From Luzula sylvatica (taxonomy: Eukaryota; Streptophyta; Magnoliopsida; Poales; Juncaceae): a DNA stretch of 64,000 bases. The notes beneath the pieces are model-generated. The model made no database searches, was not told the DNA's origin, and saw only the letters and a list, made by a program, of their open reading frames with translations. Where the stretch lies: positions 6,034,501-6,098,500 of the forward strand of contig OX326959.1 in assembly GCA_946800325.1 (NCBI GenBank). The letters are read 5' to 3'. Below, piece after piece: positions 4,873 through 42,635 of this stretch. Each line of letters starts with the position of its first letter. Positions within the stretch are counted from its first letter, which is position 1. The position numbers and the translations under genes are program-made.

Positions 4873-5029
4873 TCACCAGGGTATTTTGGAAATTTGTTGT
4901 TAATTAGATATTTTCAATTAAATTAGTTTCCTATTCGAGCATTGCATTAATTATTATTTAAACTAGGGAATTGAAAAATACCCAAATACCCATGTTAATT
5001 TGTATAAGAATTAAAAAAAAGGTCCTACC
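4873..5029. other. Short AT-rich gap between LTR and LINE
   Basis: No feature recognised; presumably host intron DNA between two insertions. Confidence 0.3.
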
Positions 5030-6200
5030 ATAGAATCACCCAAAAGGAAATAATTGAATTGAAAGAATCAGTAAACTTACAAAATAGCTTAAGCTTACTC
5101 CAGCATTTATCTGATATGGCAATCTCTCAATTGCAACAAATTGAATCAATGCTAGCAAATATTACCCCAAATTTATCTTCCGCAGACAACATTCTCTGGA
5201 AATGGTCCTCAAAAGAGTTATATTCTTGCAAAAATGCATATACCCAATTAGTAAATGGGGTCTCTGAGAGATATATTCTATATAAAATTTGGAAGTTGAA
5301 AATTCCCTTGAAAATTAAGATATTTATTTGGCTTTCAGAGCGAAATATATTACATACCTTGGATAATTTGAGAAAAAAAGACAGGATAATCCCTAACAGA
5401 TTTCCAATGTGTTGTACGGATGAGGAGTCGGTTTTGCATCTATTTTGTGATTGCAAAATTGCAAAAGAGATTTGGAGTAAACTTCATGCGTTACTTGGTT
5501 TACAAATTAAACCTGAAAAAAACCATTCAAACTATTGAAATTAGATTCAATAGACAACAATTACATGTGTTTAATTGCTATCTATATATACCAAATCTGG
5601 TGTGAGAGGTGTAGAAGGGTGTTTTTTGAAGAAAGTAAGAGAGTTTGGGGAATAATTGATCTAATTCTAACGGAGAACAATTTATATAGAAAGATCTATA
5701 GTAAAGAGCTTACTACTCAGGATGAAGATGTGGATGAGGCGAACAAGTTCTAACATGAATACTCTTAAATCAATCAAATGCTTTGCCTTGTGTGGTGGAA
5801 AGCTTGCTTCTTATCGATCGAGATTGGAGAAAAAGGATAAAATTCACTGTTCTTACAAAGCTCAGTTAAGGGAGCGTAAAATAAAGACGATGCTTGGTCG
5901 GAAGAAAAAAGAAAGAGAAGAAAGAGAAGAACAGGGGGCTTTATGCAAAAATTACCAGGTCATGGTCTAAAAAAACGGGGATTTATTTTTCTTATTTTCT
6001 TTTTCCTGGTTTTTTGTGTATTGTTCAGGGTGTATTTTTTTTGGAGTGAGATATTAGTCTTAGTTTATACTCAAAGACATAGAGCTCCATTATTTGGAAC
6101 TCTTATCTTTTCATAGAGGCTGTAATTTTTTTTCCTTTTAATATAAGCAACGGACGGAGGACTTTGAGCCTTCTCTGTTTTTTCAAAAATAAAAAACATT
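5030..6200 (+). mobile_element. 5'-truncated LINE (L1-type) with A-rich tail
   Basis: The coding remnant at 5059-5753 is the C-terminal end of a LINE ORF2, followed by an untranslated tail. The tail ends in an A-rich stretch (about 6184-6200) directly next to sequence homologous to intron 1 of the FAR genes. That is the layout of a 5'-truncated target-primed insertion. Target-site repeats were not found with certainty, so the left boundary is approximate. Confidence 0.65.
5059..5753 (+). pseudogene. LINE ORF2 C-terminal fragment with zinc-binding RT-associated domain
   Basis: The translation contains WKWSSKELYSCKNAYTQLV, then IWKLKIPLKIKIFIWLS and a CCTDEESVLHLFCDC cluster. This is the pattern of the zf-RVT domain that follows the reverse transcriptase in plant L1-type LINEs. 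The first frame runs 5059-5538; it then shifts to another frame (5535-5753) that continues with WCERCRRVFFEE, so the gene is broken. The reverse transcriptase and endonuclease domains are absent. No function is expected. Confidence 0.75.
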
Positions 6201-6262
6201 TAATACACATACTCAACGCATAGTAAATAGTATAGAGAGAGATTATTTATCTGAAGATGCAC
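6201..6262 (-). other. Intron 1 remnant of FAR relic D
   Basis: The sequence is alignable with FAR A 24208-24264 and FAR B 49221-49272 (shared phrase ATAGTAAATA and TTATTTATCT), which shows the exon next to it belongs to the same gene family. Confidence 0.6.
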
Positions 6263-6350
6263 TCTTGCCAAGAAAACTAGGAGATCCAGTGACGAGAATG
6301 GTTTTTCCTTTGAAGTATCCGGCTATTCTACTCATTCCTTCCATTTTCAT
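6263..6350 (-). pseudogene. FAR: Isolated FAR exon 1 (relic D)
   Basis: This 88-base exon has exactly the length and end phase of exon 1 in FAR A and B. It encodes [20 protein letters not shown] followed by TGSPSFLGK. A usable GT donor follows. The nucleotide-binding motif, TGSTGFLG in copies A and B, reads TGSPSFLG here, with the second Gly replaced by Ser. No further FAR exons were found between 1 and 6200. A LINE has landed in what was intron 1 and an LTR element lies beyond it, so the gene is a remnant. Its promoter side is cut by the badnavirus about 120 bases upstream of the ATG. Confidence 0.8.
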
Positions 6351-6443
6351 CTTTATTTTGATTGATTGATTGTGCGCGCACGTGCGTGCGCACGTGCGTG
6401 CGTGCGTGTTATATAGAAATAGAGCTATCAAGAACTGGAGCTC

Positions 6444-6451
6444 ATTATATA
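6444..6451 (-). promoter_or_regulatory. TATA box of FAR relic D
   Basis: TATATAAT on the minus strand, about 95-100 bases upstream of the relic D ATG. The same box within a similar context (TATAT...GGAGTATTC) is found upstream of FAR A and FAR B. The longer spacing here comes from a GTGCGTGCG-type simple repeat between box and ATG. Confidence 0.55.
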
Positions 6452-6473
6452 GTGGAGTATTCCTATCCTACAG

Positions 6474-6782
6474 TGGACCAGAACACACACAATAAATATT
6501 TAACTACTAATTTATGTTTTACATACGTATAGGCGATAAAGCGGGAAAAAGTACGCTGAGACGGAAAAAGTACCATTACTTTCGTAATACGTGAAGAAAG
6601 AAAACTTAGATAAATGAAGAGATTCATACGAAAATATAAAATAGAGTAAACTATTTTAATAACCACTTGGTATATACAAACGAACAATACTATTGGCAAA
6701 CTTATAGGTAAACGGACCTTGTGAGAAATTGGCTCGGTGAAATTACCAATAAGAAAGCTTTAGTATTTCAGTTTTTGTATGT
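6474..6782 (+). promoter_or_regulatory. Viral leader, 3' part, upstream of ORF1
   Basis: A non-coding AT-rich stretch between the end of FAR promoter homology and the ORF1 ATG. By the permuted-genome reading it is the ORF1-proximal half of the long pregenomic RNA leader, with the other half at 13581-13873. No direct sequence signature proves this; position is the argument. Confidence 0.45.
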
Positions 6783-7085
6783 ATGTCCAATAGGTTTGAA
6801 AAGTCCATAGAAGACTGGTACAATAGAGCAAGAACAGCTGATCTAGCTTATTTAGATCTAGCAGAAAATCCAACAAATAAAGACTATCTAATAACCATTT
6901 GTAATAATACCTCAGTGATTTTTGATAAGACTTGCTTATTATCAAAAGTTGCTCTTAAACACTTCCATAAATTGGAAGAGCAAAATAAGGAGTTAGCCAA
7001 CACTGTTCAGTCTCTAGAAAAGAGACTCGAATATCTTGAACAAACAATAGTCCAAAAGCTTAACGAACTAAAAACCCTTATATGA
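6783..7085 (+). CDS. Badnavirus ORF1 protein
   Basis: A 100-aa protein beginning MSNRFEKSIEDWYNRARTAD, with the N-terminal pattern of badnavirus ORF1 proteins (the DUF1319-type family, virion-associated, function poorly known). The C-terminal third (about residues 62-95) is Leu/Glu/Lys-rich and likely a coiled coil. The ATG at 6783 is chosen because it gives the family's N-terminus and is preceded only by leader. The stop TGA overlaps the ORF2 ATG in an ATGA at 7082-7085, the usual badnavirus junction. No internal stop or frameshift is present. Confidence 0.88.
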   Translation: MSNRFEKSIEDWYNRARTADLAYLDLAENPTNKDYLITICNNTSVIFDKTCLLSKVALKHFHKLEEQNKELANTVQSLEKRLEYLEQTIVQKLNELKTLI

Positions 7086-7483
7086 GTGATTGGCGGTTAG
7101 GTGCTGAGAGTTCAACCTATAGAGACGCACTGAGAGCAGTAGAATCAATTGAACCACCGGCAATCGGTTTCATAAGACCCAGAGAAGTAACTGAAAAGTT
7201 ATCTTCTACACAAATAAAGCAAAACAACACAATTATACAATTGTTAATTAAGATTTCAGAAAATCTTGACGATATAAAGATAGCAGTCAAGAGAATCGAG
7301 GCGAAAGAAACCCAAGCCAAACCAGAGGACCTCACGTCGGCAATAGACGACCTCCAGAAGCAACTCCAAGGGTTAGACCTCGGAACGAGCAAGCCTATTA
7401 AGGCTACGAAGGGGCGATTGTACGTATTTAAGAATCCGCAAGATATCTTCGACGAAGAAAAACGAAAAGCGAGACTACAATGA
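7082..7483 (+). CDS. Badnavirus ORF2 protein (virion-associated, nucleic-acid-binding type)
   Basis: 133 aa. The sequence has an N-terminal Ala/Glu-rich stretch with ATTENTION-free motif PPAIGFIRPREV, a central predicted coiled coil (about residues 50-105) and a basic tail (EEKRKARLQ). Size, place and the ATGA overlaps at both ends match ORF2 of badnaviruses, whose product is associated with particles and binds nucleic acid non-specifically through a basic C-terminus. The start at 7082 is set by the stop-start overlap with ORF1; the end overlaps the ORF3a start at 7480-7483. Function is by family analogy; the frame is fully open. Confidence 0.85.
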   Translation: MSDWRLGAESSTYRDALRAVESIEPPAIGFIRPREVTEKLSSTQIKQNNTIIQLLIKISENLDDIKIAVKRIEAKETQAKPEDLTSAIDDLQKQLQGLDLGTSKPIKATKGRLYVFKNPQDIFDEEKRKARLQ

Positions 7484-10092
7484 GTACAACCAGAACCGAA
7501 ACAGCCCGACCATCGGTCACCAGAGAAGCAGTAGAGAGACGACCAACAATCGATGACCAGATCAGAGGTTATCGGTTAGGAAGCCGTCTACGGTTCGAAG
7601 CACAAAGACGACTGACCGGGAATAACCCCCGGTACCAGCGAAGTCTAGAATCACAACTCAGCCCCGAGGCCGAATTGGACATTTCTCAATATAGACGAGC
7701 CCAACAAGTTCCTGCGGAAACGCTTTACCAAGCAGGATGGTTCGAAAGACAGCATCGAGTTTATCAACACTACTCTGACGAACGAACGTTGGTAACCGAG
7801 GGCATGCAAGTAGAGTTGCCGTTTATTACGGATGCAAGTTACCAGTTATTGGTGAGAGAAGGGTTGCAGCACTTACATATCGGCATGATAATGGTGCGGC
7901 TCTATACCCTACATCGGCGAAACGCCGGTACGAATGCGTTGATCCTAATACGAGATACGCGATGGAGTGATGACAGGAGTGTCATAAGCTCTATGGAGAT
8001 AGACTTATCAAGCGGGTCGCAGTTAGCTTATACTGCACCAAATATGACAATTAGTATCCATGATTTTAGGAACCATATTCAACTGGTTCTACAAACTCAT
8101 GGCTATGACGGATGGCAAGGAGGAGAAAGTAATTTGTTACTTTCCCGGTCGTTGATTGGAAGATTATCAAATACCAGCCATACGAACTTCAGGTACAATG
8201 TGCAGAACGTAGCAGATCATTTGACAAGTCGAGGTGTTCAGGCAATCCCTGGACATGCACACACGACAACGGAGTTACAAGGGCGGCAGTGGATCATAAG
8301 ACCACCTACGAATACAGCTCCGCGAGTACCTCAACAGGCCAGAGTACGATCCCGGACAGATGGATCACTGACCATAGCATTTGCAGATTATGCTGTAAAT
8401 GCCCCGGCGAAAGAAGAAAACAGAGGAACAAATGATGAGGAAACGTTAGAAGAAACTATCCTCTTACTAACTGAGGATGAGGATGACGAAGAAGATGAGT
8501 TTGCGACTTTACGAGTCTTGATGGCTCAAGCAAACGACGTAGCACCCGTGTGGGATCATTACGAAGAATCGGAAGAAGAATTTATCAATCCCTTCGGAAA
8601 CGATGGTGGGAGAATCGAAAACGTGATGGCTGCGAGTGAAATGGATTATCCCATGCTAAGGGAATTAATGTCGGAAACAGCATTCTCGACTGGAGAATCA
8701 TCGCTCTCGAGACAAAATGAACCCATAATGGGACCAGCCAATTACCCTCCAGCAAGAGGAGGGCAATCATTCGACATACCTGAGATTAAGGCTCGGGTAC
8801 AGAATTTTAGAGGCGGTTTTGCTCAACAAAACAACGGAAGGTTTAATTTACCTTCAGCACAAGCAGGCCAAGGCGCAATTCTTATATTGCCCGACGACAT
8901 CGGTCAATATGCAGAAATAATTGCTAGATGGGAATCTATAACCCTGAACCTGGTTAATGAACGAAACTGGGAAAATAATAAGGCAAAAGTCATCTACATC
9001 GAGAACTTACTCGGTGATCTGGAAAAGAAGCTATGGACACAATGGAGAATGGCTTTTCCAACGGAGTACGAAGAAATCGTTAATATAGCCGATGACCCGC
9101 AGAATGTTTTATCCCAAATCAGGCGGGTAATTCTCTTAGAAGACCCGGCAACAGGATCAACTGAAGAACAAGATAGGGCATATAACGACCTGGAAAGGTC
9201 GTCATGCTACGACATGAAAAACTTGTTTGATTACATCAATGACTATAAGATCTTAGCAATAAGGTCTGGTAGATTGTATGTATCCCCGGAACTTTCAATG
9301 AAGTTTTTCCGGAAGATGCCACCGCTAATTGGTAAAGAGTTGGACAACGCATTTCAAACCAAGCACCCTGGGAACACCCTTGGGGTCTTACCAAGAATTC
9401 ACTTCACCTACCAATATCTTGCTGAAATGTGTAAAAAGGCGGCATTACAACGGAGTCTGAAGGACTTGTCCTTCTGTGGACGAATTCCTATCCCAGGTTA
9501 TTATCAAAAACAAAAGAAATATGGTTTGCGTAAAGCGCAATCATACAAAGGAAAACCACATGACTCACATATCCGAGTATTCAAGAAAAAGTATTCGGAT
9601 CGAACCCGAAAATGCAAATGCTTTATCTGTGGTGAAGAAGGGCATTTTGCGCGGGAATGCCGAAAGAAAACCGGCAACCTGGCTAGGGCAGCAATAATTG
9701 AAAACCTAGACCTAGCAGAAGACTGGGATGTACTCTCAGTCGACATAGGAGAATCCGACAGCGATGCGATATGCTCGTTCTCGGAAGGAGAAACCGGTGC
9801 CAACCAAGTTACCATGAACTTGGATGAACTTCCATACGAAGAAGTTTTAATGCTAACAACCGAGTCGACGGGGTGGCGACAACAAATTACGCTACCAGAG
9901 GCAATGAGAAATTGTATACACCAATGGTTGGATAATGCGGAAGTTGAAACCGGTGAGGAAAGATGTACTTGTTGTAAAGAAATAACAAGTAACATGTTTA
10001 GGAGTCATTGTAACCAATGCAAAATGACCACCTGTCCAATGTGTTCGAGATTTATCTCGGAAGGAAAATCCAGAAGAAACAACAGCCTATGA
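7480..10092 (+). CDS. Badnavirus ORF3a: movement protein plus coat protein with two cysteine motifs
   Basis: 870 aa. Residues about 100-270 resemble the viral movement protein domain (around LHIGMIMVRLYTLHRR and THGYDGWQGGESNLLLSRS). An acidic stretch (about 325-340, DEDDEEDEF) precedes the coat region, which runs roughly 440-690. A CCHC knuckle, C-x-C-x2-C-x4-H-x4-C, lies at residues 712-727. A second motif, C-x2-C-x11-C-x2-C-x4-C-x2-C, lies at residues 829-855; this pattern is characteristic of the genus Badnavirus. In most badnaviruses this region continues in frame into the protease and polymerase. Here it stops at TGA 10090-10092, and the next ORF begins inside that stop. The start at 7480 is fixed by the ATGA overlap with ORF2. 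Confidence 0.9.
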   Translation: MSTTRTETARPSVTREAVERRPTIDDQIRGYRLGSRLRFEAQRRLTGNNPRYQRSLESQLSPEAELDISQYRRAQQVPAETLYQAGWFERQHRVYQHYSDERTLVTEGMQVELPFITDASYQLLVREGLQHLHIGMIMVRLYTLHRRNAGTNALILIRDTRWSDDRSVISSMEIDLSSGSQLAYTAPNMTISIHDFRNHIQLVLQTHGYDGWQGGESNLLLSRSLIGRLSNTSHTNFRYNVQNVADHLTSRGVQAIPGHAHTTTELQGRQWIIRPPTNTAPRVPQQARVRSRTDGSLTIAFADYAVNAPAKEENRGTNDEETLEETILLLTEDEDDEEDEFATLRVLMAQANDVAPVWDHYEESEEEFINPFGNDGGRIENVMAASEMDYPMLRELMSETAFSTGESSLSRQNEPIMGPANYPPARGGQSFDIPEIKARVQNFRGGFAQQNNGRFNLPSAQAGQGAILILPDDIGQYAEIIARWESITLNLVNERNWENNKAKVIYIENLLGDLEKKLWTQWRMAFPTEYEEIVNIADDPQNVLSQIRRVILLEDPATGSTEEQDRAYNDLERSSCYDMKNLFDYINDYKILAIRSGRLYVSPELSMKFFRKMPPLIGKELDNAFQTKHPGNTLGVLPRIHFTYQYLAEMCKKAALQRSLKDLSFCGRIPIPGYYQKQKKYGLRKAQSYKGKPHDSHIRVFKKKYSDRTRKCKCFICGEEGHFARECRKKTGNLARAAIIENLDLAEDWDVLSVDIGESDSDAICSFSEGETGANQVTMNLDELPYEEVLMLTTESTGWRQQITLPEAMRNCIHQWLDNAEVETGEERCTCCKEITSNMFRSHCNQCKMTTCPMCSRFISEGKSRRNNSL

Positions 10093-12554
10093 GGCCATAC
10101 GAGCGGAGAGAAACTTTAGTACAGGAACTATTATCGTATATTAGTTACCTACTAGAAGAAAACGACAAACTCAAAGAAGAACTCCTTGAGTTAGAGCTCA
10201 AACTGGATGAGCAAGCCCTAAAAACTCCTACACAAGAATCAAAAGGAAAAGGTGTTTTTGAAGACGAAGATTGTATGAAGGAGTTTCAAGAAAGACTACC
10301 AGGAGGGGTAGTTATTCGAGAGCATGCCAACATGCTAGAGGAAGATCTTCATACGACTGTGCCTGACCCGTTAAGAGGAAGAAGAGTTGTCAACATGTTA
10401 TATAACCTAGAGATAACAATGGAAATACCAGGCATACCTGTATTCAAGGTACAAGCGATACTTGATACTGGCGCAACAGTTTGTTGTGTAAATGAAGAAG
10501 TTATTCCCAAGGAAGCACTCGAACCAAGTGCTTACCCTATCCAGATTAATGGGGTAAATTCACAGCAGATTGTGAATAAAAAGTTGAAAGGGGGGAATAT
10601 GGCGATAGAGGAAAATCGATTCCGAATCCCTTTCACTTACGCCTTCCCTATGGGAAAAAGAGAGGGTATCCAGATGCTCATAGGATGCAATTTCATTCGA
10701 GCGATGCAAGGAGGGCTACGAATAGAAGGACAAGTGGTCACATTCTACAAAAATGTGACTACTATCAACACGAGAGAGGATATACTTGCTAATGTAATGG
10801 ATACGGACCTGACAGACCTCGAGCTAATAGAAATCCAGCAGCTTGTTGCGTATAACTGTGGAGAAGAGTCTGAAGGATTTAAACTAAGGTTTAGCCAGGT
10901 CTTCAAACGACTCAAGCACCTGGGTTATATCGGTGAAAACCCAGTCAAACATTGGGTTAATAACAAGATCACCTGTAAACTCGAGATTATAAACTCGGAC
11001 CTTACAATCCAGGATAAACCATTGAAACATGTCACGCCGGCGATGAAAGAGCAATTCGACAGGCACACGCAAGCCTTGCTCAAGCTAGGAGTAATACGAC
11101 CTAGTACTAGTCGCCATAGAACTATGGCAATAATGGTTAACTCGGGCACCTCAATTGACCCAACAACAAAGAAAGAGGTGAAAGGCAAAGAAAGGATGGT
11201 ATTTAATTACCGGACGCTAAACGATAATACTCATAAAGACCAGTATAGCCTACCCGGAATAAATACTATTCTCAAGAAGATCGGAAAAAGTAAGATTTAC
11301 TCGAAATTCGATCTAAAGAGCGGGTTCCACCAAGTCGCCATGGACCCAGATTCAATACCCTGGACAGCTTTTGTAGTTCCAGGAGGATTATATGAATGGT
11401 TAGTGATGCCTTTCGGCTTAAAAAATGCACCAGCGATATTCCAACGAAAAATGGACAATTGTTTCCGCGGAACTGAGGAGTTTATAGCGGTTTATATCGA
11501 TGATATACTAGTATTCTCAGAAAGTGAACGAGAACATGCGGAACACCTGTCGAAAATGCTGGGAATATGTGAGAAGGAGGGTCTAATACTCTCCCCGACA
11601 AAGATGAAGATTGCGGTCCAAGAAGTTGAGTTCCTTGGAGCTGTAATCGGTAACAGGCGTATCAAGCTTCAACCTCATGTAATAAAGAAGATTATTGAGT
11701 TTGATGAGGAGAAATTGAAGGAGAAAGCAGGGCTCCGAGCATGGTTGGGAATTCTCAACTATGCAAGATCGTATATACCAAAGCTAGGTACCCTTTTGGG
11801 TCCTTTGTATTCAAAAACCAGCCCTCATGGAGATAAACGCCTAAAAGGTTCTGATCTCGAACTTATTAAAACCATTAAGAAGGAAGTCCAGCATCTTCCA
11901 GACTTGGAACTCCCACCCACGGGCGCATATATCATCCTAGAAACCGACGGATGTATGGAGGGATGGGGAGGAGTCTGTAAATGGAAACCGATGAAAAACG
12001 ACCCACGAAGCGTTGAACGGGTCTGTGCATATGCTTCGGGAAAATTCCCGGTTATTAAATCCACTATTGATGCAGAAATATATGCCTGTATGGAAACATT
12101 GAAGGCATTGAAAATCCATTATCTTGACCAGAAGGAAATAACCCTCCGAACGGACTGCCAAGCTATTATTAGTTTCTATAACAAGACGGCCGTGAATAAA
12201 CCTTCGAGAGTAAGATGGATAAATTTTGTGGATTTTATTACAGGAACAGGAGTACAAATAAATTTCGAGCAAATAGAAGGAAAAAACAATGTGCTCGCCG
12301 ACTCATTATCCAGGCTTGCAGCGAGGATGATGGTAGTAAATACAGACTACCACAGCTTGGAAAAAGTGGAGAAATTGGAGCAAGTACTAGAAGAAGTACG
12401 ACATGCTCCAACTGAGATCGTAAACTCCGTTTCTATTATTATTAACGGCATAATTCAAGAAATCGACGGCGGAGATGACCCGCCTTACCAACGATCGACG
12501 GAAAAAGGGTACCGTATGTCAAAAGCCCTTGGCGGAAAGAGTAACCGCGCTTAA
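10089..12554 (+). CDS. Badnavirus ORF3b: aspartic protease, reverse transcriptase, RNase H
   Basis: 821 aa if started at the ATG 10089-10091, which shares an ATGA with the ORF3a stop. The frame is also open from an earlier ATG at 10017 (845 aa). The later start repeats the spacing of the other two viral junctions, so it is preferred. Numbering from 10089: a coiled-coil N-terminus; retroviral-type protease DTGAT at residue 126; reverse transcriptase with FDLKSGFHQV, MPFGLKNAPAIFQ and catalytic YIDD at 469; RNase H acidic residues in ETDG (Asp 620), AEIYACME (Glu 663), RTDC (Asp 689) and ADSLSR (Asp 738). All catalytic residues are present and the frame is uninterrupted. It would copy pregenomic RNA into DNA and process the virion proteins. 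Confidence 0.9.
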   Translation: MRPYERRETLVQELLSYISYLLEENDKLKEELLELELKLDEQALKTPTQESKGKGVFEDEDCMKEFQERLPGGVVIREHANMLEEDLHTTVPDPLRGRRVVNMLYNLEITMEIPGIPVFKVQAILDTGATVCCVNEEVIPKEALEPSAYPIQINGVNSQQIVNKKLKGGNMAIEENRFRIPFTYAFPMGKREGIQMLIGCNFIRAMQGGLRIEGQVVTFYKNVTTINTREDILANVMDTDLTDLELIEIQQLVAYNCGEESEGFKLRFSQVFKRLKHLGYIGENPVKHWVNNKITCKLEIINSDLTIQDKPLKHVTPAMKEQFDRHTQALLKLGVIRPSTSRHRTMAIMVNSGTSIDPTTKKEVKGKERMVFNYRTLNDNTHKDQYSLPGINTILKKIGKSKIYSKFDLKSGFHQVAMDPDSIPWTAFVVPGGLYEWLVMPFGLKNAPAIFQRKMDNCFRGTEEFIAVYIDDILVFSESEREHAEHLSKMLGICEKEGLILSPTKMKIAVQEVEFLGAVIGNRRIKLQPHVIKKIIEFDEEKLKEKAGLRAWLGILNYARSYIPKLGTLLGPLYSKTSPHGDKRLKGSDLELIKTIKKEVQHLPDLELPPTGAYIILETDGCMEGWGGVCKWKPMKNDPRSVERVCAYASGKFPVIKSTIDAEIYACMETLKALKIHYLDQKEITLRTDCQAIISFYNKTAVNKPSRVRWINFVDFITGTGVQINFEQIEGKNNVLADSLSRLAARMMVVNTDYHSLEKVEKLEQVLEEVRHAPTEIVNSVSIIINGIIQEIDGGDDPPYQRSTEKGYRMSKALGGKSNRA

Positions 12555-12714
12555 CAAATCACTCTAAAAATGCGAAAGTGGTGGACCGCACTAAAACAAT
12601 AACCACAAGTATCTAATATGTAAGAAATGTATATGAACAGTTTGTTAATTTTCTTTGTGTTGTAAAGGATGTTTAATTTAATCCGAGCACGCTTGCAACA
12701 AAACCACCGAACCC
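12555..12714 (+). other. Gap between viral ORF3b and ORF4
   Basis: 160 bases with stops in all forward frames. No promoter or shine-like motif is recognised. How ORF4 would be translated is not evident from the sequence. Confidence 0.5.
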
Positions 12715-13095
12715 ATGGAGCGTTTCGAAGGGAAGTTCGAATGTCCCTCCCGCAATGCAGAATTATGGGGAACTCTTGGGGACCCGAATGAAGAAAGCCT
12801 GGTGGAGACAATCATGATAACTGAGGATCTGTTATTCAACTATCCTAGAACGATTCAGGCGGAGACGGACCAAAGAAGAAGGGCGTCCGAGATACACCGG
12901 GAGCAGGTAGTAAAAACCTGTATGGACTGTGAAGTACTCCTTTCCTTGTGCTATCTTCAGAAGGCTCGACTCGAGGACCAGGCCTCCAACGACAATTGGG
13001 CCAGAGATGCATTAGGCCCAGTATCCAGACACATCCAGGTGCTAGAAGAATGCCATCGACATATCAACAGCATTCACCAAAGTCCTTATTACTAA
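12715..13095 (+). CDS. Viral ORF4, small protein of unknown function
   Basis: 126 aa, starting MERFEGKFECPSRNAELWG. It is not recognised as any known domain. It looks alpha-helical, with charged stretches (ETDQRRRASEIHREQ), two clustered cysteines (CMDCEVLLSLC) and a His-rich end (CHRHINSIHQ). Codon composition is like the other viral ORFs and unlike the AT-rich host flank, and the frame is fully open. It lies between the polymerase ORF and the promoter region. A few badnavirus-like genomes carry an extra ORF here, including, from memory, sweet potato pakakuy virus, which also has a split ORF3. Confidence 0.65.
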   Translation: MERFEGKFECPSRNAELWGTLGDPNEESLVETIMITEDLLFNYPRTIQAETDQRRRASEIHREQVVKTCMDCEVLLSLCYLQKARLEDQASNDNWARDALGPVSRHIQVLEECHRHINSIHQSPYY

Positions 13096-13105
13096 AGCGT
13101 GGAAT

Positions 13106-13184
13106 CTTATCTTTTGAGTAGTGCACATGGGTGCAGCTCACTTTCTTATCTTTTTGAGTAGTGCACATGGGTGCAGCTCACTTT
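13106..13184 (+). repeat. Tandem direct repeat (39 bp, two copies) in the viral promoter region
   Basis: A block containing GAGTAGTGCACATGGGTGCA is present twice head to tail (13106-13144 and 13145-13184), differing by one T. It lies about 155-235 bases upstream of the TATA box, in the position of caulimovirid enhancer elements. Each copy contains the near-palindrome TGCACATGGGTGCA. Confidence 0.8.
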
Positions 13185-13338
13185 CTTTACTTTTTGGGCA
13201 ATTATTTGTACTAGATGCCCACTTTTTGTGTGTAAAGGACATCCCACTTGTGGACAGCCTTTAGTTTAGTGGACGATGGGGCCCAGTGAGCACCCGCACT
13301 GAATTATTGAGCTTCTTCGGGAGTGTTCCGTAGTAGTC

Positions 13339-13345
13339 TATATAA
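13339..13345 (+). promoter_or_regulatory. TATA box of the viral pregenomic RNA promoter
   Basis: TATATAA followed by GGAAGAGAAG, the arrangement seen in badnavirus and caulimovirus promoters, with a pyrimidine-rich CATCTCCCTCCACTCTC about 25-40 bases further on as a likely start region (near 13370). It lies downstream of the last ORF and upstream of the primer-site-like sequence, as in badnavirus genomes. Confidence 0.75.
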
Positions 13346-13559
13346 GGAAGAGAAGATCACTTGTAAGGATCATCTCCCTCCACTCTCATTTCTCTACAAC
13401 TCTTGTAAACCACTATTATTAGAAAATATTTCCGCTGTGCTGCTCTACCTATTTGATTAATTTATCAATTGAAGAAATCCAAGACTTCTTATCAGCACAT
13501 ATTCAATTACAAAACATTGTCAATTTTCTATGTATAAGAAGTTTTTAAGAACAACTAGT

Positions 13560-13580
13560 TGGTATCCTCGCTCCGTTTCG
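13560..13580 (+). promoter_or_regulatory. Diverged tRNA-Met primer-binding-site-like sequence
   Basis: TGGTATC followed by CTCGCTCC and GTTTCG. The canonical caulimovirid site is complementary to the 3' end of plant initiator tRNA-Met. Here the first seven bases (TGGTATC) and a distal six (GTTTCG) fit that complement, while the middle does not; I count 15 of 21 positions. It lies about 190 bases after the presumed transcript start, inside the leader, where the site is expected. It may be decayed or a real variant. Confidence 0.5.
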
Positions 13581-13873
13581 GAAAAAACACTAAATAGAGA
13601 ATCTGTGAGGCAAATCATTAGTTTTCTTTCTTTGATAGTTTGTATTTTAGAAAATTATAAAAAAAATTGTGTCTTTTATTTTTGTTATGGAATTATAAAA
13701 TGATCATGATGTGTATTTTACATTTTATAGGAAATAAATTTTATTTTGATCATTGTGACTTGTGAGGTTACTAAGAATTTTTGGTTAATATTTTGTTATA
13801 AGTTTTATAATGATACACATGACACATTATACTATACATGTGCTATTATTATTTTATTTTACCTAACAATATT
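13581..13873 (+). other. Viral leader, 5' part, to the right junction (inferred)
   Basis: AT-rich, non-coding. It ends where homology between the two segmental duplications begins. Added to 6474-6782 it gives about 600 bases between primer site and ORF1, a normal badnavirus leader length. An AATAAA occurs near 13734. Part could be host DNA; the junction is not directly visible. Confidence 0.4.
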
Positions 13874-14853
13874 ATATATACATTATTTCATGGATAAGAA
13901 TGAGTATTTTTTTTCAAATAGAGCTAACTTGTTAATTTCCATGTAAATATTTTAAAATGAAATATATCATTTAATTTTTTTTAAAACGAAATAAAAATAT
14001 ATTTATTTTTTATTTCCTCTTTCATTGGAGCATAAATACCTTTCTAGAATTGTGTAAACATAGCACTGTGAATTTATTAATATATATATTAAAATAAGTA
14101 TTATTATGAATTTCTTAGGTATTAATATAATATTAAGATATAATATGAATTTATTTTTATATTAAAATAAGTATTAACATGAATTTATTTATATATTTAA
14201 ATAGTATATGAATTTATTTACATATTCTTAGTGCATTCATTTTATTTGTCCAATATTATTGTGTCTCGTTACACGATTAACTACAAAAATTATGCAACGC
14301 TAAATCTTGCTCATTATTGTGACTCATTACACGATTGGCAGCAAAAATTATAAAACATAAAATAAAAAGTACACGTGTCATGTTGTTCGTTTGGCATTAT
14401 TGAGACTCGTTACACGATTGGCTACACAAATTATGAAACATCAATTCTTACTCATTATTCTCACTCGTTACACGATTAGCTCCAAAATTATTTATACATA
14501 AAATCTAAAAAATGAACATGTGTCGCCATCTCATGCATTTGAAATTTTTTAATATACTGTAGTATTATCCCTGTATAATTTGGGCTGTTACTACATTATA
14601 GCATTATAAAGAATAATTATTGGATAGGATTTTTTTCTAAATTTTTATTCAAATTAGAAAAGATATTTTGAATATTTTTCAATCATCCATTTCAATTCAT
14701 AATCAACGCAGTACTTGAATAGAAAATCACACATATGGAACAATTCCATGTATTTTGCCTTCTTTTTATTCTATTCGATTGCTTCTTGCCAGAAATTGTA
14801 TTTATATTTTATTAGAAATTGTAATGATTAAATTTTTCATCGTTGATTTCCTC

Positions 14854-15362
14854 TGTTGCGTGGATACTTCAAAAATCAAGTAATACCGTATCGGATACCG
14901 TATCGGATACCGATACTCGTCGGATAATCGTCGAATAATCGTTGGATACGTATCAGATACTCCACGCCGTGACGTATCCGAATATGTTATTTCAAAATAA
15001 TAACATATACTTCTTGGATACGTCCGGATACTTCAAAATAATAACGTGGTGTATCCGGATAGTTCTAACGTATATAAAATGTACTTGAAAATAAAATAAA
15101 AATTTGAAATCGAAATAAATGGATAATACAAATAAGTAAATAAAATAAATATTTACTTAATATGAAGTTATTTACGTAAAAATAATGTTTTTAGTATTCA
15201 AATATATAATATATAAAATTATTAAATATATAAATTATAATTAGTAAAAACAATAAAATATTATATATAATAGCGTATTGCATTATATGTTTTTTGAAAA
15301 TTGTTGAATTATCGTATTTATATCGTGTCGGATACGATACCCGTATTCGTATTCGTGCAACA
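14854..15362. mobile_element. MITE-like element with GGATAC/GTATCC-rich termini
   Basis: The ends read TGTTGCGTGGATAC and, inverted, TGTTGCACGAATAC. The flanks share TTGATTTC, a possible target duplication. The left part holds a run of GTATCGGATACC-like palindromes. A second copy sits at the matching place in duplication B (about 39020-39522). Superfamily is not clear. Confidence 0.5.
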
Positions 15363-15629
15363 TAATTGATTTCTGAGTCGGTCATAGACTCATAGACTAT
15401 GCAAGTAAACTCAATAGTTTCAATTAACATTCAAGGATCATAAAATTTCAAGCTTGAGGGGCTAATTTGAATATTATGTGCTTTCTTCTTCGGTCGGTAC
15501 CATTTAATAAAGAGGGTCGTCGCATCATTATCAAAATGTCCTATGAATAGTCAATTTAGCTTGCTGGCTTCTTTACCGCCCAACATATTGTTGGTATTTT
15601 CTTTCATCTTTCTGCATTTATTTTCATTA

Positions 15630-16623
15630 CTAGGAAAATATCCCGCGCTTCGCTGCGGGATATATTATTTGATAAGAAATAATATAATAAGCAAAAGTAA
15701 TTATTTGATATATTATTTGATATATTATTTCGCTGCGGGATATATTATTTGATAAGAAAATAAAAATATTTCTCGCGTTTCGCTGCGATTTTTCAAAATC
15801 TGTTATGATCATAAAATAATAATTTTATCTAAAACGTTACAAGTGCAAATCAAAAGTAATCTTCATAAATGTTAATTTAAAAAAAAGTCTGATATTAAAT
15901 AGTCTCACAAATATTATGCAATAAATATAAATTTTTTTCCTCCTCAAAATATATCATATGTTTCAAAAGAAAAATTGAAATGTTTTATTTATAATACAAA
16001 ACATGTCAAATAAAATAAAATTCTGAAAATGACAACAAAAAAAAAAACATAAAAGACGCAGTTTGGTACCAATCAAAAATATTATAATAAACACAAAAAA
16101 ACGCAGCTAGGTACCAATCAAAACTGTTATAATAAGCAAAAAAAAAAAATACCAGCTCAGGCTAACAAAAAGTATTTGTGTGAATAGTATTTTGTTAACA
16201 GTAAAATTATAGTATACAAATTATATTTATTAATAGGATGAAAAATTAAAATATTTTATTTAGAACACAAGACATATGTCAATTATATTTATTAATACGA
16301 TGAAAAATTCAAATATTTTATTTAGAACACAAGATTTATGTCAATTATATTTATTAATACGATGCAAAATTCAAATATTTTATTTAGAACACAACACATA
16401 TGTCAAATAAAATAAAATTCCCAAAAAAAAAAACGATGAACGGTAATATACGATGAAAAATTCAAATATTTTACTTAGAACACAACACATATGTCAAATA
16501 AAATAAAATTCCCAAAAAAAAAAAAAAAAAAAAAAAAACGATGAACAGTAACCGTGATGAACAGTATTTAGTGATGTGGCCTCACCATAGCTCTTGTATT
16601 CAAAAATTAATGGGAGGGGAGAA
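15630..16623 (-). mobile_element. Non-autonomous Helitron, present only in duplication A
   Basis: On the minus strand the element ends with the hairpin CCCGCAGCGAAGCGCGGG, an AT-rich spacer, then CTAG followed by T, the Helitron 3' signature. Its 5' end reads TTCTCC on the minus strand, one base off the usual TC start. Duplication B holds the empty site (TCATTATTGGTTGAAG around 40519-40534), which shows a precise insertion between A and T without target duplication. About 990 bases, no coding capacity. A repeated CGCTGCGGGATATATTATTTG block lies at 15651-15760. Confidence 0.85.
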
Positions 16624-16809
16624 TTGGTCGAAGTACCAATTAAAGAACTTTGTCCATAATTTGAACTTTCAAAAATATTTTTTCCACTGTTTTTTTGTTT
16701 CTTTCAGGGAATTGATGTTCGAACTACCAATTAAAGTTTTTCTAAAAAATACCAATTAAAAGGTGTATCTACTTTATTCCAAAAAAATTAATGTGTCTTA
16801 AAAAAAAAA

Positions 16810-17504
16810 TTCTTCAAAAATCCCTTAACTTTTTTGGGATTCCTCAAAAACCCCGTAACTTTTTAATTATTTGAAAACCCGGTATAAATTGAATTTAATT
16901 CTTAAAAAAACCCCTACAAAGGTTAACCTTAACATTCCATCCAATTTTTATTTTTTGGGACAAAAATACCCTTCTTGATTTTCTTTTTATAAATTCTTTT
17001 ATTCAATATAAATTAATAAATACATAAATAAATTTAATATTTCATGATAAATATTTCACGTTGTTATAATTAAAAATAATTTATGATAATATTTTACAAC
17101 TCGCTATTTTATTTTACTATTTATAATATATGTATAAAGTATTACTTTATTAAATAAATATTATTTCACATTACATTTTTAATTTTTACATGAAAATAAT
17201 TTTATATAAAAATCATATAATAAATTATAGAATAGTATAATAAATATCATCATATAATATTATGAAATATTAAATTGTAAAATATTATTTATTTATTTGT
17301 TAATAGAATAAATTCAATTATAAAATAAATCATGAGGGTATTTTGGTCCAAAAAAGTATAATTTGGATGAAAAATGAAAGATAACACTAGTAAGGGATTT
17401 TTGAAGAATTAAACTCAATTTATAGAGGTTTTTTCAAATAATCTATAAGTTAGGGGGTTTTTGAGAAATTCCAAAAAAATTAGGGGATTTTTGAAGAATT
17501 CTCT
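16810..17504. mobile_element. Long-terminal-inverted-repeat MITE (copy A)
   Basis: The left end (TTCTTCAAAAATCCCTTAAC...) and the inverted right end (AATTCTTCAAAAATCCCCTAA...) match over more than 100 bases. The centre is AT-rich and non-coding. It is shared with duplication B (about 40711-41410), so it predates the duplication. Long inverted ends point to a Mutator-like family, but no target duplication was established. Confidence 0.65.
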
Positions 17505-18632
17505 TAAAAAAAGTACCAAATTATATCAGGTTCCTCAAATTCCTTTGAACACTTTTATATCACCGATTAGCAATTAATTAACATGATAATTACCAAATTA
17601 TACTTTATTAACGGTTAAGTGATATTGATTAAGAATTGTTAATTCATATGTATTTTAATTATGTATCAATTAATCGTTAATGGAGTGTCTTTTTGTTAAT
17701 CACTATGTTAATTAATCGGTGACATAGAGGTGTTGGGGTAAATTTAAGAAGCACCATATATGACCTATTAAAATATTATCCATCAATTAGACGAATTTGT
17801 TGGTGTTCTTTTTCAATCTATTCTAACAACAAGCCCGTTTTCATTCTTGTCGTTATTTCTCATATATTAGCATAGTATATGAAATCCATATCAATCTCGC
17901 ATTTTTTTTTTCTAATTTTGAGTTTCATGTTTAAATTGGGCAATATGGCAATTTTGGTTAAGAGAATTTCACTACCACTCTCGTTAACATCCTCAATTAC
18001 TAATTAGTTTTTTTTTTTAATTTCCGCATTAGCTTCGTTTTATTGGTCCCAGTACCCGGTCCAAGTAGTACTGAATTTGTTATTAATGATGGTGTTATGT
18101 TACTCCAAATTAATTTGTAATTTATTATTCACTACATAATCGTATTTCCATTTTATTTCAAAATTTTCATTTCAACCCCTTCAATTTTTTTAATTTCCCA
18201 ACAACATTAAAAAACTCTTTTAATCAGTGCCACTACTACAAAACATAATATTAACTACAACAATTTTTTCGTCTCCAATACTATTATTAGTTACCATATT
18301 CCACAATAGCTACAAGAAGTCGTCTCCAATAATGTACAGCCAATAATTGATATATTAAAATATTATTGGCTACGAAGGTCGTCTCCAATATTATTATTGG
18401 CGACGGCATGTACTGTGGTAGTTAATAATAGTATTGGCTACCATCTTTTAGGGTCATAGACAATAATTTATTGGTTGTTCCGTAATTATAAGTTTATAAA
18501 ATTACTGGAATCATAATAATCATAATACATTTGTTCATTGAAATTACAATACAAATCAAACATATATATGAAAAATCACAACTTATCAACCTTATAGATA
18601 AAATCACATTACTCTAATAATTCTTCGTGGGA

Positions 18633-18635
<3 letters not shown>
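17505..18635. other. 3' flank of FAR A with a CACTA-like terminal tract
   Basis: No gene is seen. The part 18231-18440 begins CACTACTACAAAAC and carries repeated TAACTAC, TTGGCTAC and GTCTCCAATA motifs, which resembles the subterminal repeats of CACTA elements or a derived MITE. An AT-rich stretch rich in TTAATTAACG-like motifs (17560-17700) looks like another small MITE. All of it is shared with duplication B. Confidence 0.4.

Positions 18636-18720
<85 letters not shown>
18636..18720. repeat. Compound (AT)n(AG)n microsatellite in the FAR A 3' region
   Basis: About 19 AT units followed by about 24 AG units, 38 bases beyond the FAR A stop codon, so probably in the 3' UTR. The same locus in duplication B has about 35 AT and 12 AG units. 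Confidence 0.9.
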
Positions 18721-18724
<4 letters not shown>

Positions 18725-18757
18725 TATAAATACATTTTTGCTTGTTTGATCGTAAAT

Positions 18758-21700
18758 TCACTTCGAGAGATACTTTATGACTCCGGGAATGTGAATTCTG
18801 TAAAAATATTCGTCCCAATCAATTGTTTTTGGGTCAAAATTGAACATTTTTGCTTCGATTTGGTCTTCTTTTGCTACTTTCTGCCTCAGTCTTTGCAAGT
18901 TCATATCATCGAAACTTCACAAAAAATAAAATAAAATAACTATATGGTAAGTATAGATATTATAACCTTATCATAATTAGGGAGGAGAAACTAAGAGGAA
19001 AGCATACCGGCCTTTGAAAAAACCATAAGGGGCATAGAGATCCAGAAGATGAACAAGAAACCGGTATTGTCTATTTAATTCATCATATCGATGCGAAAAC
19101 AGACCACATAATAGCAAGTTTATCATATGCAATAACTGTAAATACAAATACGAAATATTTTTTAAATCGGAAAAGAACAACTATAAATATATTCATATTA
19201 AACATAACAAAGGGGAATTTATGATGTGGGCCAGAAAAAATGACAAAAAAATTCAATTTTTCTTCTTCTTACTTTTTTTTTAATTTTTTAATTTCTAGTT
19301 TCATATATGTCAATACATAGAAAGCGAAGAGAAATACTTGGAAAAAACCATGGTTCTGAATATCGGACTCGGACTCGGACTCGGCCGGCCCCGTTGACTC
19401 GGGACTCGGATGACTCGGACCAGACAGAAAAAAAAATCGGACTGTTAGTAAAAAATATCGGGAAAATAGAAAAAAATTATAAAAATATATTTAAAAAATT
19501 GAAAAACATTATATAAACAAATTCAAGTAATAAAAAACTCAAACTAGGACATAGCATAGTACAATGCATAGTCTTGATACTTGGAATCGAGTTCGAAAAT
19601 TATTTTAGAACAAAATTGAACACAAATAAATAAATTTGTGTAAAAAATATTATATTTAATGATAGAATAGTCTATAAATATTTGCATTTGAATGTGTGTA
19701 TTGTATTTAAAAAATTGGATTTTGATAAAAAAATGTTATAAAATAAAATAATATACAAAACATTTTTTTGAAAATGATAATAATTAATATTATGATATGA
19801 GATTTATAATAACTAAAATATATTGAAAAAAAAAGTCAACTAAAACTATCCTCATTATAGTAATTATAATAACTAAAAAAATGTCATCTAACAATAATTA
19901 TAATTTTCTATATTATTATAATATATACATAACTTTATTAAGTTCTTAGTTTTATAAATGTTGAATGTATTTTATGTTCTTTTTAAATAAAACTCTTCTA
20001 TAAGATAAATAATAACTAGTAATATGATAGAGCTTTTAACTTCAATACAAACCGTACATGTACAGAAATAATTAATGTTCAATGTACTTTTTATAAAAAG
20101 ATGCTTAATAGTCTCCTAGAGTTTTTATGAGTAATGATAGGGATCATGAATTTTTACCCACGAATTTTCCTCACCTGTCACGTGACAGGTGACAATTGGC
20201 TCATTAAAAGTTGTGCAAAAATGCAACCAATTGCCACCTGCCACGTGGCAGGTGAGGACAATTCGTGAGTACAAATTCATGGTCCCTATCATTATTCAGT
20301 TTTTATAAACGTTGTACTTTTTTTTTCTTTTCTGAGAGGACATTAGTCATCTTCTCCTCTTTCAAACACATTTCTCCATTGTTACACTCTTTGTTTCCAT
20401 ACCCAAAATACAAGAAAAATATTAGATCAATTATCTCCATTATTTTGCGACCTCAGACCAAGATCTTATAATCTCGATGCATGAATTAAAAAAAAAAAAA
20501 AAATCGGTGACTCGGGTTTGACATTATCGGGGGAGACTCGTTTCGGTTGCCACCGAGTACGATATACTCGGCCGAGTTTTTTTTAACTCGGCCGATATTA
20601 CGAACCATGGAAATAACGATTTATTTGTTTATAAACAAATATTTAGAAAAATATTCTTTAGTCATCTCCAATTTTTTTCTAAAAAAATAAATGAACAAAA
20701 AAGAGAGAAAGAGATTAACCTCTAAAGGAAATTTGAAACAAAGAATCATGTACACTCTAAAACTCCTCATTGAACTGAAGAAATAAATTTTTGTAAATGG
20801 CATGATCTTGCCATCTTTTGCGGTACGAGGATTCTCTCTGAAATAACGATACCCACTCTGTTCAAATGTAGAAAATGGTACTGGATTTCTGAGAGAAGAA
20901 CTAGTGTGGTATATAATCTCCACATCCTCCTCAGAATGCACTATCATTGCAGTCATCATTGCATTCACTACCATGTCTCCTGGTATCTACATTTCCAAAT
21001 AGAGTTAAATAATAGTACATTATAAACAAGGACTAATCTATATAGGAGAAGAGCGTTTTGGTTTCATTCTAGATTTTTGACGAACAATGTATATTGCAAG
21101 TGATTCAATGTATTTTATTAGTATAAAAATATAATTTTTATTGTTTGGTCGGTGCTTCCAAGTGTTTGTCGTTTGAATTCATTAAATATTTTTTACTTGA
21201 TTTCCCCAAGGAATCCTTCAATATCTTCTGCTCATCATGACAATTATCATTGCAAATGGGATCGAATTAAAGCCAAACAAAATGGGAACTAGTAATAATA
21301 GTTACCACGTCCATGATCTCGTTAAGATCGGCGAGGTAGCAAGAGAGACTCCCTTTCAAATATCCTAGTATAAAGCTGTCTATTGTCCTGTGAATTAATT
21401 TCACATTTTAATTTACATAAAACTTCAATTTTATTTAATAGGACGTAGCCTACAGGCCCTTGCAAATTTGGTAATTTGGTAATTTACATAAAGTATTTAC
21501 CGGGTGCCTTCCATCCATCCAGGAAGGGGGTCTTTGTGCAGACTAGTGATGATAGTAGGCCTCATGATAACAAGTGGTATGTTTCCTCTCATCTCACCTA
21601 AAATCATCTCCCCCATAGCTTTTGTGAATACATATGTGTTTGGCCACCCAAAATATCTTGCCCTTAATTTCATCAAAAATACAGAAAAAATCAATAACTA

Positions 21701-24352: not shown

Positions 24353-24392
24353 CTTTGTTTTTTTGTGTGTGTGTGATTCAGGAAAGGAGTTA

Positions 24393-24400
24393 ATTATATA
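24393..24400 (-). promoter_or_regulatory. TATA box of FAR A
   Basis: TATATAAT on the minus strand, about 41-48 bases upstream of the FAR A ATG. The box and context are conserved in FAR B and relic D. Confidence 0.65.
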
Positions 24401-24757
24401 GGGGAGTATTCATGTCCTACAAAGTAGAGGGCCGGTCCCTTCAATATGGTTGCACCGGTGCTATTTCCGTACAAAGTTGTTGCCCTCCCAACCATAAGAT
24501 TGTTTATTCGAGCAATTTATTAATTGAACAAGTTCAATACTTCATATATGTTGTATTATTTCATTATAAATTTTTACTATCAATAATTTTCATGCATATA
24601 CTCTTTCTTTTTGACACATGTACATGTTCTAGATTCTATTGGTGACCTGTCATGCAACACCAATACAAAACTTGAAATACAAAAACAAAACGCATACAAA
24701 AAATCTAGAATACAAAAGCCATACCAGACGTATGGTCAAAAGTAACATTATTCTAGT

Positions 24758-34722: not shown

Positions 34723-35045
34723 CACATATTGTCTCTATATATTTTCTAGCTAATCCCTCCAATATACAGATAGGAAGCAAACCATACTTAATTAATGGCA
34801 GAAAAGGTTAAGGGATATGGTAAGTACCTCAGATTCTACGTACTGTTTTGCGGACTCGTTGTTCTCGGCTCTGACAAGAAGAATGATCTTCTTCACTTGA
34901 GGCTCAACTCTTGTTATTTTCTCCATCAAAATTGACAAAATATATATCATCAATCCAATTGAAATTAGCTGAGAGATACAAAAATGCATTCATGTACTTG
35001 ACAAAATATTTAGTTCATTCTATCGCCGTGATGATTTGGGTCAAT

Positions 35046-35900: not shown

Positions 35901-35905
35901 ACATA

Positions 35906-36004
35906 GGGGGGGGGGGGGGGGGGGGGGGGTTTAGGGTTTAGGGTTTAGGGTTTAGGGGGGGGGGGGGTTTAGGGTTTAGGGTTTAGGGTTTAGGGGGGGG
36001 GGGG
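35906..36004 (+). repeat. Interstitial telomere repeats TTTAGGG interleaved with G-tracts
   Basis: A run of about 24 G, then TTTAGGG four times, a run of about 13 G, TTTAGGG four more times, and a third G-run. TTTAGGG is the plant telomere unit. The block sits exactly at the junction between the LINE-like fragment and organelle-like DNA. Long G-runs are also a known source of sequencing or assembly error. Confidence 0.9.

Positions 36005-40110: not shown

Positions 40111-40164
<54 letters not shown>

Positions 40165-42538: not shown

Positions 42539-42541
<3 letters not shown>
41411..42541. other. 3' flank of FAR B
   Basis: Counterpart of 17505-18635; no gene is seen. Confidence 0.4.

Positions 42542-42634: not shown

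Positions 42635-42635
<1 letters not shown>

What the first reader, a model, noticed from the sequence alone, without database searches (positions are those of the whole stretch)
6474..13873. Complete endogenous badnavirus with every ORF open
All five viral frames are free of stops and shifts, and the protease, reverse transcriptase and RNase H catalytic residues are all present. The span, about 7.4 kb, equals one genome, permuted within the leader. Most plant pararetrovirus integrants are rearranged and decayed, so an intact single unit suggests recent integration or a copy that could still be expressed. The left end abuts a FAR promoter; the right end abuts a segmental duplication.
Basis: partly seen in the sequence, partly recalled or inferred. 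Interest (0 to 1): 0.88.

Follow-up and report, generated by a model that had tools for sequence, protein, structure and literature searches.

The report
Near-complete but broken endogenous badnavirus
A plant chromosome, likely of a rush or sedge, carries one nearly genome-length copy of a badnavirus beside a fragment of a fatty acyl reductase gene; most of its genes are still open, but its main gene is split over two reading frames where close relatives have one, and its likely promoter points out of the copy, so it is predicted to be a young, silent viral fossil and not a working virus.

Summary
The badnavirus is really there, but it is likely neither complete nor fully open. The left junction is sharp at 6471/6472: two paralogous FAR leader regions in the window stop matching there. 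By base composition the right junction lies near 13.61 kb (13582-13644), not at 13873, so the unit is about 7.1 kb and 13612-13872 is probably host DNA. ORF1 (DUF1319), ORF2, and the MP, CP, zinc knuckle, protease, RT and RNase H domains with their catalytic motifs are present. ORF3, however, lies in two overlapping frames (7480-10092 and 10017-12554). All 11 Rhynchospora relatives examined run through that point in one frame, and no slippery heptamer lies there, so ORF3 is most likely broken by a frameshift. The tRNA-Met primer site is degenerate. The likely promoter (TATA at 13339) reads outwards, so a lone unit would not yield a pregenomic RNA. ORF4 is supported: its C-terminal half is 43-49% identical to the ends of two R. 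tenuis proteins. Host FAR genes are closest to Juncus effusus, Rhynchospora and Carex. One lesion in about 6.2 kb of frames implies a young insertion, likely under about 1.6 million years. It is a new member of a known kind.

The parts
6213..6344 (-). Exon 1 and start of intron 1 of a FAR (fatty acyl-CoA reductase) gene fragment, 'FAR0'; start codon at 6344; the rest is cut off by a LINE whose 3' end lies near 6190
   Evidence: 83-84% identical to the 5' ends of FAR copies at 24217-24361 and 49237-49374; start codon read by eye
6345..6471 (-). FAR0 5' leader/promoter, left host flank
   Evidence: 6437-6472 matches 24386-24421 (86%) and 6444-6471 matches 49429-49456 (27 of 28), ending at the junction
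6472..6782 (+). 3' part of the viral leader, left end of the unit
   Evidence: No match to FAR paralogues; A-rich like the viral coding strand; more structured than shuffles, z = -3.05. Viral origin inferred from position
6783..7085 (+). ORF1, 100 aa, badnavirus DUF1319
   Evidence: PF07028 E 1e-08, 35.8 bits against cut-off 28.1; overlaps ORF2 by 4 bases
7082..7483 (+). ORF2, 133 aa
   Evidence: Open frame with 4-base overlaps on both sides; no Pfam family above cut-off; identity by position
7480..10092 (+). ORF3, first half (870 aa): movement protein, coat protein, zinc knuckle
   Evidence: PF01107, PF22909 (E 2.2e-42), PF00098
10014..10092 (+). 79-base overlap in which ORF3 changes frame: the likely lesion
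   Evidence: 11 of 11 Rhynchospora relatives compared are continuous across it; no XXXYYYZ heptamer in 10000-10092
10017..12554 (+). ORF3, second half (845 aa): aspartic protease, reverse transcriptase, RNase H
   Evidence: PF00077, PF02160, PF00078, PF17917; DTGA, YIDD and RNase H motifs; best relative 71% aa over 95%, 85% in RT-RNase H
12715..13095 (+). ORF4, 126 aa
   Evidence: C-terminal part 49% and 43% identical to the ends of R. tenuis proteins P0039 and P0015; no Pfam family
13339..13345 (+). TATA box of the likely pregenomic promoter, pointing right
   Evidence: TATATAA, the only match to TATA[AT]A[AT] between ORF4 and the PBS-like site; function inferred
13560..13580 (+). Degenerate tRNA-Met primer-binding-like site
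   Evidence: 15 of 21 matches to the recalled initiator tRNA-Met complement, the best in the unit (next 13); 9 of 12 to the core, a tie with 7790
13582..13644 (.). Zone of the right virus/host junction
   Evidence: Composition change-point 13612-13618, 2-lnL limits 13582-13644 over three spans
13612..13872 (.). Probable host DNA, right flank
   Evidence: 13611-13872 is 19.8% G+C, like 13873-14173 (15.9%) and unlike 6474-6783, 13096-13330 and 13331-13568 (31-46%)
13873..24755 (.). Segmental repeat carrying FAR copy F1 (minus strand); partner at 38043-49794
   Evidence: Self-comparison, about 97% identity over the main blocks, 87% at the right end

Best explanation
This is a single, nearly genome-length endogenous badnavirus, likely about 7.1 kb, whose ORF3 lies in two frames where its closest relatives have one, so it is most likely a young but disabled fossil that would not make virus. 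It probably entered as a linear fragment opened in the leader and was joined by end-joining repair into the spacer of a tandem FAR gene cluster, losing some leader and some host sequence. Shown: the domains, the five frames, the left junction, the frame change and the continuity of 11 Rhynchospora proteins across it. Inferred: that the frame change is a mutation and not recoding, the exact right junction, the promoter function of the TATA site, the mode of entry and the age.
For: Domains and catalytic motifs. Relatives: the best four hits are Rhynchospora proteins at 70-73% aa; the RT-RNase H quick tree puts the window with five R. pubera/R. breviuscula rows, SH-aLRT 96. ORF3: of 27 relatives chosen from 120 listed, 19 match both halves in one protein and 8 match the second half only; all 11 Rhynchospora ones pass the point with a single residue between the two matches, through a conserved cysteine motif (shown for 5 of them); no slippery heptamer there or in frame anywhere in the first half. 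Left junction: two FAR paralogues stop matching at 6471/6472 and continue with host DNA that is not found in 13560-14100. Right junction by composition. Likely promoter at the right end, pointing out. Young: one lesion in 6222 nt of frames gives d of 0.0010-0.0019, upper bound 0.0056-0.0107.
Against: Split ORF3 is natural in some badnaviruses: sweet potato pakakuy virus has ORF3a/3b (PMC7145414 passages), so a split alone does not prove a lesion. The Rhynchospora relatives are proteins annotated from plant genomes, and a gene model could hide a shift. A one-base assembly error would look the same. 13569-13610 is 43% G+C and A-rich, so the right end is fuzzy. The strand-pairing test does not decide the right end: 13372-13568, taken as viral, pairs with the left leader piece no better than chance either (z = -0.04). 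A second TATA-like match lies at 6635, before ORF1. The age rests on assumed indel ratios and a recalled substitution rate.
Confidence: 0.78

Rival explanations
1. The two-frame ORF3 is the native state of this virus, as in sweet potato pakakuy virus, and the second half is made by recoding or from its own start; the unit is then functionally open.
For: SPPV-A and -B have ORF3a (MP, CP) and ORF3b (PR, RT, RH), ORF3b in a +1 frame and, when extended before its first ATG, overlapping by 12 and 21 nt; the paper also names jujube mosaic-associated virus. The same two domain sets are split here, and an ATG opens the second half.
Against: The break here lies inside a cysteine motif downstream of the coat domain; 11 of 11 Rhynchospora relatives compared read through it in one frame. 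The two sweet potato proteins first match at residues 132 (P0024) and 127 (P0030, which begins 39 residues earlier) of our second half. The second frame is -1 to the first here (coordinates), against +1 in SPPV. No slippery heptamer.
Confidence: 0.1
2. The frame change is a one-base error in the assembly, and the chromosome carries a continuous ORF3.
For: It is the only stop or shift seen in about 6.2 kb of frames.
Against: No long homopolymer at the site. No reads are available here to test it.
Confidence: 0.1
3. The unit runs to 13873 and is a full-length 7.4 kb genome permuted within the leader.
For: 311 bases left plus about 300 right would give a leader of ordinary badnavirus size (recalled). 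Homology to the second repeat copy starts at 13873.
Against: Composition changes at 13612-13618, not at 13873. 13611-13872 does not pair with the left leader piece (z = +2.55), but this weighs little, as the viral 13372-13568 does not either. The 13873 boundary can be explained on the other side: in copy 2 a different segment and a hAT-like element with an 8-bp target duplication sit just left of 38043.
Confidence: 0.15
4. Misassembly or contamination by free virus DNA.
For: No reads examined; only one assembly window.
Against: Left junction cuts host sequence that two paralogues continue; no second viral segment is seen in the self-comparison, and the unit lies inside an array of host genes.
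Confidence: 0.04

Closest known systems
Badnavirus-like proteins annotated in Rhynchospora pubera, R. breviuscula and R. tenuis genomes (P0001-P0004, P0013, P0039 and others)
   Same: Closest by sequence: the best four are 70-73% aa to the protease-RT-RNase H half, up to 85% in RT-RNase H; ORF4-like ends in two R. tenuis proteins
   Different: Their ORF3 is continuous where this one changes frame (11 of 11 compared); 4 of 4 R. pubera proteins that cover the MP-coat spacer carry about 90 extra residues there
Sweet potato pakakuy virus (genus Badnavirus)
   Same: ORF3 in two frames, MP-CP and PR-RT-RH
   Different: Episomal, split at another place and in another frame relation, with a canonical TGGTATCAGAGC primer site; 62-63% aa in RT-RNase H (P0024, P0030)
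Andraeanum bacilliform virus (P3b)
   Same: Badnavirus-type coat, protease, RT, RNase H in one protein
   Different: P3b joins coat and RT, so its split, judged by the name P3b, lies before the coat; 55% aa over the second half
Replication-competent endogenous banana streak viruses
   Same: Endogenous badnaviruses
   Different: These carry complex rearrangements with duplicated viral pieces, and release of a genome by recombination is proposed (PMC10377300 passages); this is one likely disabled unit in the window, without a second copy there

Membership tests
Genus Badnavirus (endogenous copy) | Badnavirus-type ORF1 (DUF1319) and ORF2, chained by short overlaps | tested here: met
   PF07028 in ORF1; overlaps 7082-7085 and 7480-7483; ORF2 by position only
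Genus Badnavirus (endogenous copy) | One large ORF3 with MP, CP, PR, RT, RNase H in this order | tested here: inconclusive
   All domains in order, but in two frames; the relatives compared have one; some accepted badnaviruses are split too
Genus Badnavirus (endogenous copy) | RT-RNase H groups with badnaviruses | tested here: met
   Quick tree of 35 rows: sits with Rhynchospora rows (96), among rows that include named badnaviruses; no RTBV or other named genus was in the tree
Genus Badnavirus (endogenous copy) | tRNA-Met primer site TGGTATCAGAGC | tested here: inconclusive
   Core absent from the unit at up to 2 mismatches; the best 21-base match, 15 of 21, is at the expected place between promoter and junction; its core match, 9 of 12, ties with 7790. 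Decay or truncation at the junction would explain it
Integrated (endogenous) virus | Host DNA directly joined on both sides | tested here: met
   Left junction exact; right junction by composition, host repeat from 13873; no reads
Complete, intact viral genome | All genes in frame and whole leader present | tested here: not met
   ORF3 changes frame; primer site degenerate and right end short by composition
Replication-competent endogenous caulimovirid | Tandem or rearranged copies that can yield a terminally redundant RNA or a recombined circle | tested here: inconclusive
   One unit in the window; no second viral segment at E 1e-10 and 100 bases or more; the rest of the genome could not be searched

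The most novel reading that the evidence does not exclude
Rushes and sedges are host to an undescribed badnavirus lineage with a conserved fourth gene after ORF3 and an unusual primer site, recently infectious enough to have left a nearly whole copy in a chromosome.
Probability: 0.45. Interest if true: 0.45.

Novelty: new member of a known kind. Interest (0 to 1): 0.3.

Why it matters
Near-complete, little-decayed single integrants date recent contact between a plant lineage and a badnavirus, here probably rushes or sedges. Four searches of the held library turned up no paper that, by title or the passages seen, describes a badnavirus integrant of this group; one lists 43,979 bp of pararetrovirus in Luzula sylvatica and one a Juncus effusus transcript with a movement-protein part. 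It also shows a trap: a long run of open frames can hide a broken polyprotein gene, because each half stays open on its own. The ORF4 match suggests a lineage-specific viral gene worth naming.

Tried and rejected
Viral DNA relatives: two scans of viral contigs, with one RT piece and with alignment A1, gave no confirmed relative; the phage collection gave none. So the leader and both junctions could not be compared with related viral DNA.

Own assembly: the genome search 'own' failed as busy at all 8 attempts. Other copies in the genome are therefore untested.

Leader pairing between the two ends of the unit, as a test of permutation: no excess pairing for four right-hand pieces (z -0.42, -0.04, 0.06 and +2.55) nor for a host control piece (z -0.51). 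Since 13372-13568, taken as viral, scores -0.04, the test cannot tell viral from host here.

Programmed -1 frameshift: rejected as the main reading, since no XXXYYYZ heptamer lies in 10000-10092. Direct match of ORF4 in the protein database: 1 candidate, none at E <= 0.01, because only proteins of similar length are scored there; the match appeared at the ends of 2 of 120 longer relatives. Of 1000 mononucleotide shuffles of 12555-13340, 5 had an open frame as long as ORF4's.

A clean insertion of virus into the FAR leader: rejected, because the host sequence that follows in the paralogues is not found in 13560-14100.

Papers: PMC7145414, PMC10377300, PMC11538461 and PMC8346255 were seen as passages; all other papers only in search listings. 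Searches found none.

Full report
What is there. Between 6472 and about 13612 the window holds a badnavirus. Five ATG-started frames follow one another: 100, 133, 870, 845 and 126 aa. Searched in seven pieces against Pfam they give DUF1319 in ORF1; a movement protein, a caulimovirid coat domain (E 2.2e-42) and a zinc knuckle in the 870-aa frame; and retroviral/caulimovirid protease, reverse transcriptase and RNase H in the 845-aa frame; ORF2 and ORF4 match no family above its cut-off. The catalytic motifs DTGA, YIDD and those of RNase H are present. The self-comparison (E 1e-10, matches of 100 bases or more) shows no second viral segment in the window.

Relatives. With the protease-RT-RNase H half as query, 568 proteins scored E <= 1e-10 among the 7992 candidates scored; the best 120 are listed. 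The best four are Rhynchospora (sedge) proteins at 70-73% identity; named badnaviruses in the list (P0008, P0016, P0024, P0029, P0030) have 55-60%. In RT-RNase H the window is 85% identical to R. breviuscula P0002. A 35-row quick tree places it with five R. pubera/R. breviuscula rows (SH-aLRT 96). The 34 relatives were chosen by me from the 120, and no RTBV or other named genus was among them, so the tree tests placement among those hits only.

ORF3 is most likely broken. In most badnaviruses ORF3 is a single frame (PMC7145414 passages). Here it lies in two frames that overlap by 79 bases (10014-10092). I compared 27 of the 120 listed relatives with the two halves, kept apart. 19 of 27 match both halves in one protein and 8 of 27 match only the second half. 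All 11 Rhynchospora proteins among them pass from the first half to the second with one residue between the two matches; for the 5 of them printed, the point lies in a conserved cysteine motif. No XXXYYYZ slippery heptamer occurs in 10000-10092, nor in frame anywhere in the first half. The simplest reading is a frameshift in this copy. Intact relatives exist. Sweet potato pakakuy virus does have a natural split, but the two sweet potato proteins listed first match at residues 132 (P0024) and 127 (P0030, beginning 39 residues earlier) of our second half, so the split is elsewhere.

A second difference. Four of four R. pubera proteins that cover the spacer between movement and coat proteins (P0004, P0011, P0036, P0043) hold about 90 more residues of acidic sequence there. 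Whether this copy lost them or the relatives gained them is not known.

ORF4 is supported. The 126-aa frame has no Pfam family and no hit in the length-limited protein search. Its C-terminal part is 49% and 43% identical to the very ends of two R. tenuis proteins (E 1e-18 and 1e-14 for the single comparisons); these are 2 of 120 proteins compared. Five of 1000 mononucleotide shuffles had an open frame as long. In those R. tenuis models ORF4-like sequence follows a shortened RT region, probably through gene-model splicing. A phrase search for a badnavirus ORF4 downstream of ORF3 found no paper; that search was narrow.

Left junction. The flank is the 5' end of a FAR gene on the minus strand: 6213-6359 is 83% identical to 24217-24361, and the leader stretch 6444-6471 matches 49429-49456 at 27 of 28. 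Similarity stops at 6471 for one paralogue and 6472 for the other. The start codon of this FAR fragment is at 6344, 128 bases from the unit (read by eye). The paralogues continue with sequence shared by 24421-24755 and 49456-49794 that is not found in 13560-14100, so host DNA was lost or rearranged. This would fit end-joining capture of viral DNA as filler, a route proposed in a review (PMC10377300 passages).

Right junction. A two-part composition model of 13096-14230 breaks best at 13612 (lnL gain 36.2; 13873 gives 20.7); two other spans give 13617 and 13618, with 2-lnL limits of 13582-13644 over all three. 13611-13872 is 19.8% G+C, like the host DNA after 13873, while 13569-13610 is 43% and A-rich. 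A pairing test with the left leader piece did not help: 13611-13872 scored z = +2.55, but 13372-13568, taken as viral, scored -0.04. The sudden start of repeat homology at 13873/38043 can be explained from the other side: copy 2 carries unrelated DNA and a hAT-like element (36660-38030) between two copies of the 8-base site CAGAAGGC. This is good but indirect evidence that 13612-13872 is host.

Primer site and promoter. TGGTATCAGAGC, seen in pakakuy virus, has no match in the unit at up to 2 mismatches. The best 21-base match to the recalled tRNA-Met complement is at 13560, 15 of 21 (next 13); over the 12-base core it has 9, a tie with 7790. The likely TATA box, TATATAA at 13339, is 244 bases downstream of ORF4 and reads right, so in this linear copy all viral ORFs lie behind it. 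A second TATA-like match lies at 6635, 148 bases before ORF1; it sits in A+T-rich leader and is not where a badnavirus promoter is expected, but it is not excluded. The FAR fragment on the left reads left, away from the virus. In the review, release of endogenous petunia vein-clearing virus is tied to tandem arrays and that of banana streak virus to duplicated, rearranged pieces (PMC10377300 passages); neither is seen in this window.

Host. A composite of FAR exon pieces from copy F1 matched Juncus effusus best (80%), then R. tenuis and Carex rostrata (79%). NAD_binding_4 was found in 2 of 4 FAR pieces scanned. The host is therefore likely a rush or sedge; the species is not known, and its own proteins may be left out of the search. 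Luzula sylvatica has 43,979 bp of pararetrovirus sequence (PMC11538461, one passage), so such inserts are expected in this group.

Age. 4.6% of substitutions in the 6222 nt of frames (overlaps counted twice) would create a stop. With assumed indel:substitution ratios of 0.05-0.15 and one lesion seen, d is 0.0010-0.0019 with an upper bound of 0.0056-0.0107. At a recalled grass rate of 6.5e-9 per site per year that is, by my arithmetic, about 0.16-0.30 million years, with an upper bound of about 0.9-1.6. If the lesion predates insertion or is an assembly error, the unit is younger still.

Verdict. A recent, near-complete but most likely disabled endogenous badnavirus in a likely rush or sedge: a new member of a known kind. 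The claim that it is complete with every ORF open does not hold.

Noticed in passing
36652-38038: hAT-like element (36660-38030) flanked by an exact 8-bp target-site duplication, CAGAAGGC; it sits at the left edge of the second repeat copy.
   Followed up: partly
13873-24755 and 38043-49794: Two long repeat copies with FAR genes on the minus strand, about 97% identical in the main blocks and 87% at the right end; a third, more diverged FAR copy lies at about 28-35 kb.
   Followed up: partly
3820-6200 and 59909-60980: LINE-like sequence (zf-RVT at 5008-5535) whose 3' end near 6190 cuts the FAR0 fragment in intron 1; 3820-4872 is 87% identical to 59909-60980.
   Followed up: partly
61331-62191: Transposase_21 (tnp2) frame of a CACTA-type element (E 3.3e-70), followed by a DUF4218 match in 62491-62895.
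   Followed up: no
13112-13187: Direct repeat of about 36 bases, spaced by 40, upstream of the likely viral promoter (read by eye); it could be a promoter element duplication.
   Followed up: no
1-542: 22-bp-periodic tandem repeat at the left edge of the window.
   Followed up: no
35000-36651: Segment of higher G+C (39-41%) of unknown origin left of the hAT-like element.
   Followed up: no
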